Below, piece after piece: positions 30,645 through 31,983 of a DNA stretch of 44,405 nt. The notes beneath the pieces were generated by a model, which worked only from the letters and a program-made list of their open reading frames with translations, did no database searches and was not told the DNA's origin. The stretch is from Rhodobiaceae bacterium. Its GTDB lineage: Bacteria > Pseudomonadota > Alphaproteobacteria > Rhizobiales > TMED25. The translations under genes were made by a program, and so were the position numbers. The stretch spans positions 1 to 44,405 of the forward strand of contig JABIEF010000026.1 of NCBI GenBank assembly GCA_018651345.1. Direction: 5' to 3'. Each line of letters begins with the position of its first letter. Within the stretch, counting starts at the first letter, position 1.

Positions 30645-30683
30645 TCTTTATTTTATAACATAAAATAATGATTGGAAAATAAT

Positions 30684-31343
30684 TTGATTGAACTTAAAAA
30701 TGTTAGCCTGAGATATAATCTCAACAGAGAGATACTAAATAATGTATCATTTGCTATTGAGCCAGGTGGTTTCTATTACATTACAGGTTCTTCAGGTGCT
30801 GGCAAAACATCTTTATTAAAATTATTATTCTTATCGCTAAAACCATCTGATGGGAAGGTATCAGTATTTGGTCACGATATATCAAAAATTTCAAATTATA
30901 AAAAACAATTATTAAGAAGAAGAATTGGGTTTGTATTTCAGGATTTTAGACTTCTTAACCATCTCACTACTTATGAAAATATTGCATTACCTCTTCGAGT
31001 TAGAGGGGAAGACGAAATAAATTACAAAAAAGATGTAATTGAACTGTTAAAATGGGTTGATCTTGAACATTGCATACATTCAAAACCAGAAGTTTTGTCT
31101 GGCGGAGAAAAACAAAGAGCTGCTATAGCAAGAGCTGTGATAGGATCCCCAGAAATCATTCTTGCTGACGAACCTACTGGGAACGTTGACCCAGATATTG
31201 CATCACGTATATTGAAGTTATTTCTTGAATTAAATAAACTCGGCACATCTATTGTAATAGCAACCCATGATACAGCAATAATCAAGCAAATCAAAAAACC
31301 TATAATAGAATTAAAAAATGGAAAAATTAAAATACAAAAATAA
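30684..31343 (+). CDS. ftsE: Cell-division ATP-binding protein FtsE
   Basis: All ABC motifs are present: Walker A GSSGAGKTS, Q-loop FVFQDFRLL, signature LSGGEKQR, Walker B IILADEPTGN and the switch histidine ATHD. The start is the TTG at 30684, giving MIELKNVSLRY like other FtsE proteins, with GGA about nine bases upstream; a TTG at 30672 adds four residues. FtsE powers FtsX in septal peptidoglycan remodelling. It overlaps ftsX by 26 bases. Confidence 0.95.
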   Translation: MIELKNVSLRYNLNREILNNVSFAIEPGGFYYITGSSGAGKTSLLKLLFLSLKPSDGKVSVFGHDISKISNYKKQLLRRRIGFVFQDFRLLNHLTTYENIALPLRVRGEDEINYKKDVIELLKWVDLEHCIHSKPEVLSGGEKQRAAIARAVIGSPEIILADEPTGNVDPDIASRILKLFLELNKLGTSIVIATHDTAIIKQIKKPIIELKNGKIKIQK

Positions 31344-31983
31344 GATTAAAATATTATCTAGTTTAGAAAATATAAAAAGTTTAAACAAAGGTAGAATAAG
31401 ATCTTTAGCTCCAAAACCATCTAAATTAATACCAAATGATGGAATTGCAGGAAAATATCTGCTAATCATAATCTCTTTAATGTGCTTCACAATATCACTA
31501 TTACTTTGTGCTATTATCCTAATAAATAATACAATATCCGCATCTCAAATTTCAATAAATCTACTACAAACTTTTAATATTATTAGCACTCTTATAGTAA
31601 TATTAATCTCAGCTGCTATCTGTAGTGTTATAATATTTGCAACAAATGCAGCTTTAACCAGTAACAAAGAAGTTGTACAGGTTCTAAATTTAATGGGAGC
31701 TTCAAGAAATTTTATTGCCTATCAAATACAAATAAAATTTTTTAATCTAAGTATTTTAGGAGGGATAATTGGATGCTTTTTAACATTATTGACAGTTTTT
31801 GCCATCAACCCATTTTATAGCCAACTATTCAATATGATCTATAATTATGACACTGATATTATAATTATCAATTTTTTGAATTTTCAGGTTTATGAGTATT
31901 TATTTATTTTGATAGTTCCTCTATTATCAGGGCTTATAGGCCTAGTTTCATCTCGAATAGCTATTATTAATATTTTAAAATAA
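31318..31983 (+). CDS. ftsX: Cell-division protein FtsX, lacking the periplasmic domain
   Basis: The 221-residue product has an N-terminal cytoplasmic tail, TM1 (about 46-70), a very short 17-residue loop, TM2 (88-107), the conserved coupling segment EVVQVLNLMGASRNFI, TM3 (about 144-165) and TM4 (194-213). Normal FtsX has roughly 100 residues or more between TM1 and TM2, which form the periplasmic domain that contacts EnvC-type regulators; that domain is absent. No frameshift is visible and the frame is open through all four helices. It overlaps ftsE by 26 bases, so expression is coupled. Confidence 0.88.
   Translation: MEKLKYKNKIKILSSLENIKSLNKGRIRSLAPKPSKLIPNDGIAGKYLLIIISLMCFTISLLLCAIILINNTISASQISINLLQTFNIISTLIVILISAAICSVIIFATNAALTSNKEVVQVLNLMGASRNFIAYQIQIKFFNLSILGGIIGCFLTLLTVFAINPFYSQLFNMIYNYDTDIIIINFLNFQVYEYLFILIVPLLSGLIGLVSSRIAIINILK

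What the first reader, a model, noticed from the sequence alone, without database searches (positions are those of the whole stretch)
31318..31983. FtsX without a periplasmic domain
TM1 and TM2 are joined by only about 17 residues, whereas typical FtsX carries roughly 100 residues or more there to bind EnvC-like activators. All helices, the coupling segment and coupling to ftsE are kept, which argues against a broken gene. A minimal FtsEX would have to regulate amidases differently or act only on divisome assembly.
Basis: partly seen in the sequence, partly recalled or inferred. Interest (0 to 1): 0.6.

Follow-up and report, generated by a model that had tools for sequence, protein, structure and literature searches.

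The report
FtsX that lost its periplasmic domain
A whole family of small-genome marine bacteria has a cell-division protein, FtsX, without the outer domain that normally switches on wall-cutting enzymes, and it has also lost the two genes that domain serves, so only the inner, assembly half of a two-sided machine appears to remain.

Summary
Window 31318-31983 encodes a 221-aa FtsX orthologue behind an intact ftsE, in the normal lysA-ftsE-ftsX-DUF218-plsC order. About 106 residues, the whole periplasmic domain between TM1 and TM2, are missing: the linker is 18 residues here and 124 in full-length relatives. This is not a broken gene or a local assembly fault. All 14 genomes held for this family (two genera, TMED25/OCS116-type marine Rhizobiales, single-cell genomes included) carry the short form; dN/dS within the genus is 0.12. 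Full-length forms were seen in the rest of the order and among the best-scoring matches across the class.

The decisive addition is co-loss. The same family lacks envC/ldpF and amiC. In the genomes examined, each gene is missing from an otherwise unchanged locus (rlmH-[envC]-ctpA; rne/[amiC]-mrcA-prfB). Both are present in other-order genomes, including two equally small ones. FtsA, the dcw cluster, AmpD, DipM and a MepM-type endopeptidase remain.

Best explanation: a natural separation of function. The FtsEX-EnvC-AmiC amidase arm was discarded; the FtsE/FtsX membrane core is kept for its Z-ring/FtsA divisome-assembly role. I found no report of a naturally loopless FtsX. The co-loss is one evolutionary event; the retained function is inferred.

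The parts
30672..31343 (+). ftsE, ATPase partner
   Evidence: TIGR02673 275.9 bits, over cut-off; dN/dS 0.04
31318..31983 (+). ftsX, short form, 221 aa
31318..31443 (+). FtsX N-terminal cytoplasmic part (residues 1-42) with LAPxP motif invariant in the family; the region that contacts FtsA in E. coli (literature)
   Evidence: low-confidence part of the model
31444..31533 (+). TM1 (residues 43-72)
   Evidence: AlphaFold helix, hydropathy
31534..31554 (+). turn joining TM1 and TM2 (residues 73-79); site of the missing periplasmic domain
31555..31662 (+). TM2 (residues 80-115)
31666..31692 (+). cytoplasmic coupling helix (residues 117-125), before the conserved GAS motif
31705..31842 (+). TM3 (residues 130-175)
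31873..31977 (+). TM4 (residues 186-220)

Best explanation
This is a true FtsX, reduced to its four-helix membrane core. In the ancestor of this marine Rhizobiales family the whole septal-amidase arm of the FtsEX pathway was lost: the FtsX periplasmic domain that docks the activator, the activator gene envC/ldpF, and the amidase gene amiC. What remains most likely works on the cytoplasmic side only. FtsE brings the complex to the Z-ring, and the FtsX N-terminus and coupling helix engage FtsA and FtsE. The ATP cycle then promotes and gates divisome assembly and septal wall synthesis, as loop-deleted or EnvC-blind FtsEX does in E. coli. Daughter cells are presumably separated by other hydrolases (a MepM-type endopeptidase, lytic transglycosylases, DipM-regulated enzymes). 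Shown here: the domain loss, its fixation in the family, purifying selection, and absence of both partner genes (at their conserved loci in the genomes examined). Inferred: the retained function and how separation is achieved.
For: The short form occurs in 14/14 family genomes across two genera, with the same 18-residue linker in all ten aligned. dN/dS is 0.12 for ftsX and 0.04 for ftsE. Full-length FtsX was found elsewhere in the order, and all but one of the listed class matches are long. Amidase_3: 0/14 in the family, 20/20 outside it, including G077 and G172 at 1.4-1.5 Mb. EnvC-type M23: none in the family against 19 of 20 outgroups by score pattern; three outgroup cases were confirmed as degenerate coiled-coil EnvC between rlmH and ctpA. 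In the family rlmH lies directly against ctpA in five genomes from both genera. amiC is missing between rne and mrcA-prfB in five family genomes. FtsA is kept and the dcw cluster is complete. The fold matches FtsX of V. cholerae FtsEX: Z 17.7, 179 residues, rmsd 2.7. Literature: FtsEX with a deletion in the periplasmic loop supports division in E. coli, and the FtsX N-terminus contacts FtsA (PMC7343993). EnvC-blind FtsX supports low-osmolarity growth but not cell separation (PMC7668044). LdpF links AmiC to FtsEX in Caulobacter (PMC10336132). Agrobacterium completes division without AmiC (PMC8416486).
Against: No experiment exists. The co-loss is one event on one stem, so the correlation is not replicated. 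The order of the three losses is unknown. The FtsA contact is inferred from E. coli. The laboratory loop deletions cited may be smaller than the loss seen here, so evidence that an FtsX without the whole Porter domain folds and works is indirect. Half of the 14 family genomes fall short of 90% completeness or exceed 5% contamination.
Confidence: 0.72

Rival explanations
1. The short FtsEX still controls wall hydrolysis, but through another periplasmic or membrane partner that contacts the TM helices or the short turn (for example DipM or the MepM-type endopeptidase), so it remains a transmembrane relay with a new client.
For: DipM-type and MepM-type M23 proteins are retained. FtsE keeps its ATPase motifs and strong constraint. 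Type VII complexes are known for diverse partners (PMC7668044). B. subtilis FtsEX needs membrane cofactors SweC/SweD (PMC6705773, title only).
Against: The turn is only a few residues long in the models, leaving little to bind. In Caulobacter DipM showed no interaction with FtsEX (PMC10336132). No new gene joins the ftsEX locus.
Confidence: 0.15
2. The complex is decaying: FtsX is a relic on the way to loss after the amidase pathway went, with little function left.
For: Small genomes; other reduced rhizobia (uncultured Liberibacter) lost ftsE and ftsX altogether (PMC3885570). FtsX identity between the two genera is only about 30%.
Against: ftsX dN/dS 0.12, similar to neighbours at 0.06-0.17. 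Intact in all 14 genomes of two diverged genera. Invariant motifs such as LAPxP and the coupling-helix GA remain.
Confidence: 0.08
3. Assembly or gene-calling artefact: collapsed sequence or wrong frame hides the domain.
For: Metagenome-assembled genome in 79 contigs.
Against: The same junction appears in independent bins and single-cell genomes from several projects. The frame is open and constrained. The profile finds no domain piece in the window's six frames.
Confidence: 0.01

Closest known systems
FtsX of the FtsEX division complex (type VII / MacB-fold ABC permease)
   Same: Partner ftsE, gene neighbourhood, four-helix core, coupling helix, C-terminal FtsX domain; fold match to V. cholerae FtsX
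Laboratory E. coli FtsX mutants blind to EnvC (loop deletion; X-lobe deletion 145-171; F152E)
   Same: Lose EnvC docking but keep the membrane core and support division / low-osmolarity growth (PMC7343993, PMC7668044)
   Different: Engineered and in part smaller; EnvC and amidases are still encoded. Here the loss is natural, complete and lineage-wide
FtsEX-LdpF(EnvC)-AmiC pathway of Caulobacter and Agrobacterium
   Same: Same class or order; the arrangement seen in the outgroups
   Different: The family has lost the activator, the amidase and the docking domain together
BceB-type permease, N-terminal four-helix unit
   Same: An FtsX-like four-helix unit that superposes without a large intervening domain (7tcg_A residues 6-176, Z 11.0)
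   Different: Part of a longer fused permease with its extracellular domain elsewhere (own knowledge); unrelated function

Membership tests
FtsX (FtsEX division complex) | Encoded with FtsE, overlapping or adjacent | tested here: met
   ftsE passes TIGR02673; ORFs overlap by 26 bp
FtsX (FtsEX division complex) | C-terminal FtsX permease domain with coupling helix, four TM helices | tested here: met
   PF02687 22.0 bits (just under 25.5) for the window protein, 32.9 (over) for the orthologue in L004; four helices in AlphaFold models; Z 17.7 to V. cholerae FtsX
FtsX (FtsEX division complex) | Whole-protein FtsX equivalog model TIGR00439 above cut-off | tested here: not met
   20.8 bits against 255. 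A full-length outgroup orthologue also misses it (70.8), so the cut-off is uninformative in this order
FtsX (FtsEX division complex) | Large periplasmic domain between TM1 and TM2 that binds EnvC-like activators | tested here: not met
   18-residue linker against 124; about 112 profile positions absent
FtsX (FtsEX division complex) | Orthologous locus | tested here: met
   ftsE-ftsX-DUF218-plsC order shared with full-length relatives
FtsX (FtsEX division complex) | Works at the Z-ring with FtsA/FtsZ | not testable with these tools
   FtsA is present over cut-off in all but one 53%-complete family genome; no localisation data
FtsEX-EnvC-amidase pathway | EnvC/LdpF activator encoded | tested here: not met
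   No EnvC-type M23 in 14 genomes; missing between rlmH and ctpA in the five examined
FtsEX-EnvC-amidase pathway | AmiA/B/C-type Amidase_3 encoded | tested here: not met
   0 of 14; missing from the rne/mrcA locus in the five examined

The most novel reading that the evidence does not exclude
A natural, lineage-wide type VII ABC complex with no periplasmic domain, whose only remaining role is cytoplasmic (Z-ring/FtsA gating of septal wall synthesis). It would show in nature that the amidase-control and divisome-assembly functions of FtsEX are separable, and that a Gram-negative bacterium can dispense with septal amidases.
Probability: 0.6. Interest if true: 0.75.

Novelty: new variant of a known kind. 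Interest (0 to 1): 0.62.

Why it matters
FtsEX is described as a transmembrane mechanical relay whose point is to activate wall hydrolases outside the membrane. Why it also matters for divisome assembly, and whether the two roles can be separated, has been argued mainly from mutants. Here evolution appears to have made the separation: the docking domain, its activator and its amidase all went, while FtsE and the FtsX membrane core stayed under purifying selection. That gives a ready-made minimal FtsEX for testing the FtsA/FtsZ-side function. It also raises the question of how these marine cells separate without a septal amidase.

Tried and rejected
Broken gene or local deletion: rejected by 14/14 occurrence and dN/dS. 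General genome shrinkage as the sole cause: two equally small genomes of the order, G077 and G172, keep amiC and EnvC; the matched FtsX frame of G077 is long (377-aa open frame; 353 aa). A displaced periplasmic domain: the second G000 match to profile A1 is most simply the two-piece alignment of this FtsX. No separate domain was found in the fetched G000 stretches, but the whole genome was not searched with the domain alone. Other short FtsX in the class: none among the listed best matches of about 385 genomes, apart from G431 with a 243-aa frame lacking the model's N-terminal part, probably a truncated gene. Weaker matches were not listed, so this is not a full exclusion. Amidase_2 as replacement: a single AmpD-like gene beside mraZ, also in most outgroups, with no evident signal peptide. 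Literature searches found no report of a naturally loopless FtsX. One search was an empty script.

Full report
WHAT IS THERE. The window carries argH-lysA-ftsE-ftsX-DUF218-plsC (the same order in G003). ftsE (30672-31343) passes the FtsE equivalog cut-off, and its Walker A, signature and Walker B motifs read intact in the translation. ftsX (31318-31983, 221 aa) overlaps it by 26 bp. Its C-terminal part matches FtsX models weakly; the cut-offs are missed by the window protein, but an orthologue of the sister genus passes the Pfam cut-off. A profile built from short and long forms aligns to the window protein in two pieces and skips about 112 positions exactly between TM1 and TM2. The linker measured in a fixed alignment frame is 18 residues in ten family sequences and 124 in seven outgroup sequences. 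AlphaFold models for both genera show four helices with a turn in place of the domain. The window model superposes on V. cholerae FtsX from the FtsE/FtsX cryo-EM structure with Z 17.7 over 179 residues at 2.7 A. Foldseek also ranks FtsX chains first, though with modest E-values. HrtB and YtrF, other members of the same fold, score close behind, so the fold alone does not single out FtsX; the gene order and ftsE do.

HOW FAR IT EXTENDS. Both genomes of the genus and all 14 of the family have the short form. Record titles of matching contigs name 'Rhizobiales bacterium TMED25', 'OCS116 cluster' genomes with AG-/AH- single-cell style names, and bin FRAM18_bin081. The family label TMED25 is inferred from those titles. 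Of 199 genomes in the order, 194 matched, and the listed frames outside the family are long; one of 237 aa (G094) lies near a contig start and is probably partial. In two class-wide surveys of about 385 genomes no other family-type short form appears among the listed matches. The weakest matches were not listed, so rare independent cases cannot be excluded.

IT IS UNDER SELECTION. Between the two species of the genus, ftsX has dS 0.71, dN 0.086, ratio 0.12; ftsE 0.04; neighbours 0.06-0.17. Each segment of ftsX, including TM1, the short linker and TM2, lies at 0.07-0.14, though the segments are short and these values rough.

THE CO-LOSS. In E. coli and Caulobacter the FtsX periplasmic domain serves EnvC/LdpF, which controls or recruits amidases (PMC7668044; PMC10336132). 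Amidase_3 is absent from all 14 family genomes and present in all 20 other-order genomes tested, two of them as small as this one. M23 proteins of the EnvC kind are seen in 19 of the 20 outgroups and in none of the family; the twentieth, G059, has only a fragment at a contig end. Assignment of the 19 rests on their score and match pattern; three were read in full, and each is a degenerate coiled-coil LytM protein between rlmH and ctpA. In five family genomes the block proB-proA-nadD-rsfS-rlmH-ctpA-rppH is otherwise unchanged and rlmH lies directly against ctpA; in one, G001, the longest ctpA frame even overlaps rlmH, which may be a mis-called start. In outgroups amiC lies between rne and mrcA; in five family genomes rne and mrcA-prfB are still neighbours and amiC is gone. 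The loss is therefore seen at the expected sites and is not a matter of genome incompleteness alone.

WHAT REMAINS. FtsA is present over cut-off in all but a 53%-complete genome. The dcw cluster from mraZ through ftsL, ftsI, mur genes, ftsW, ftsQ, ftsA, ftsZ to lpxC is present in the window's genome; apart from ftsA, genes were named from sequence and order, not each by a model. A degenerate DipM-type LytM protein with two LysM domains sits in the surE-yajC locus, and a MepM-type M23 protein with intact-looking zinc ligands is kept. One AmpD-like Amidase_2 gene sits beside mraZ. In Agrobacterium, AmpD is a recycling enzyme, division completes without AmiC, and EnvC-AmiC is used mainly for growth-pole patterning (PMC8416486), so its loss in another rhizobial lineage is plausible.

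MECHANISM. In E. coli, FtsE binds the FtsZ tail, the FtsX N-terminus contacts FtsA, and FtsEX promotes recruitment of downstream proteins and must hydrolyse ATP to permit septal synthesis. A deletion in the periplasmic loop that cannot bind EnvC still supports division (PMC7343993). EnvC-blind variants restore low-osmolarity growth but not separation (PMC7668044). The simplest reading is that this family keeps that cytoplasmic function and has discarded the periplasmic one. Shown: domain loss, fixation, constraint, co-loss. Inferred: retained function, compensating hydrolases, order of losses. The main weakness is that everything rests on one ancestral event.

AGAINST KNOWN KINDS. [quoted passage not shown] This protein is an FtsX orthologue that lacks it, so it is filed as a variant of FtsX, not as a full member of the EnvC-regulating type. 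For contrast, plant-associated Liberibacter have lost ftsE and ftsX altogether (PMC3885570).

Noticed in passing
L116:3686-5530, L117:3873-5711, L118:3079-4896: mrcA (class A PBP1a) in the sister genus is only 605-614 aa, against 770-825 aa in the window's genus and three outgroups: a shortened bifunctional PBP at the very locus that lost amiC.
   Followed up: no
L110:4844-7081 against L082:1203-6181 and L080:2430-7851: A further gene of about 390-420 aa (probably a divergent polysaccharide deacetylase, named from memory, not by a model) lies between ctpA and rppH in two outgroups and is missing from the family.
   Followed up: no
window 31318-31983: The window FtsX scores below both the Pfam and the NCBIfam FtsX cut-offs, so automatic annotation may call it hypothetical and gene-presence surveys may wrongly report FtsX as absent in this family.
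   Followed up: partly
L078:2879-3937: DipM-type LytM factor retained, with two LysM domains and degenerate zinc ligands, although its amidase target AmiC is gone; its remaining partners would be of interest.
   Followed up: partly
L015 (G003:C1:126643-126957): Weak second FtsX-like match with two internal stops in one family genome, not identified.
   Followed up: no
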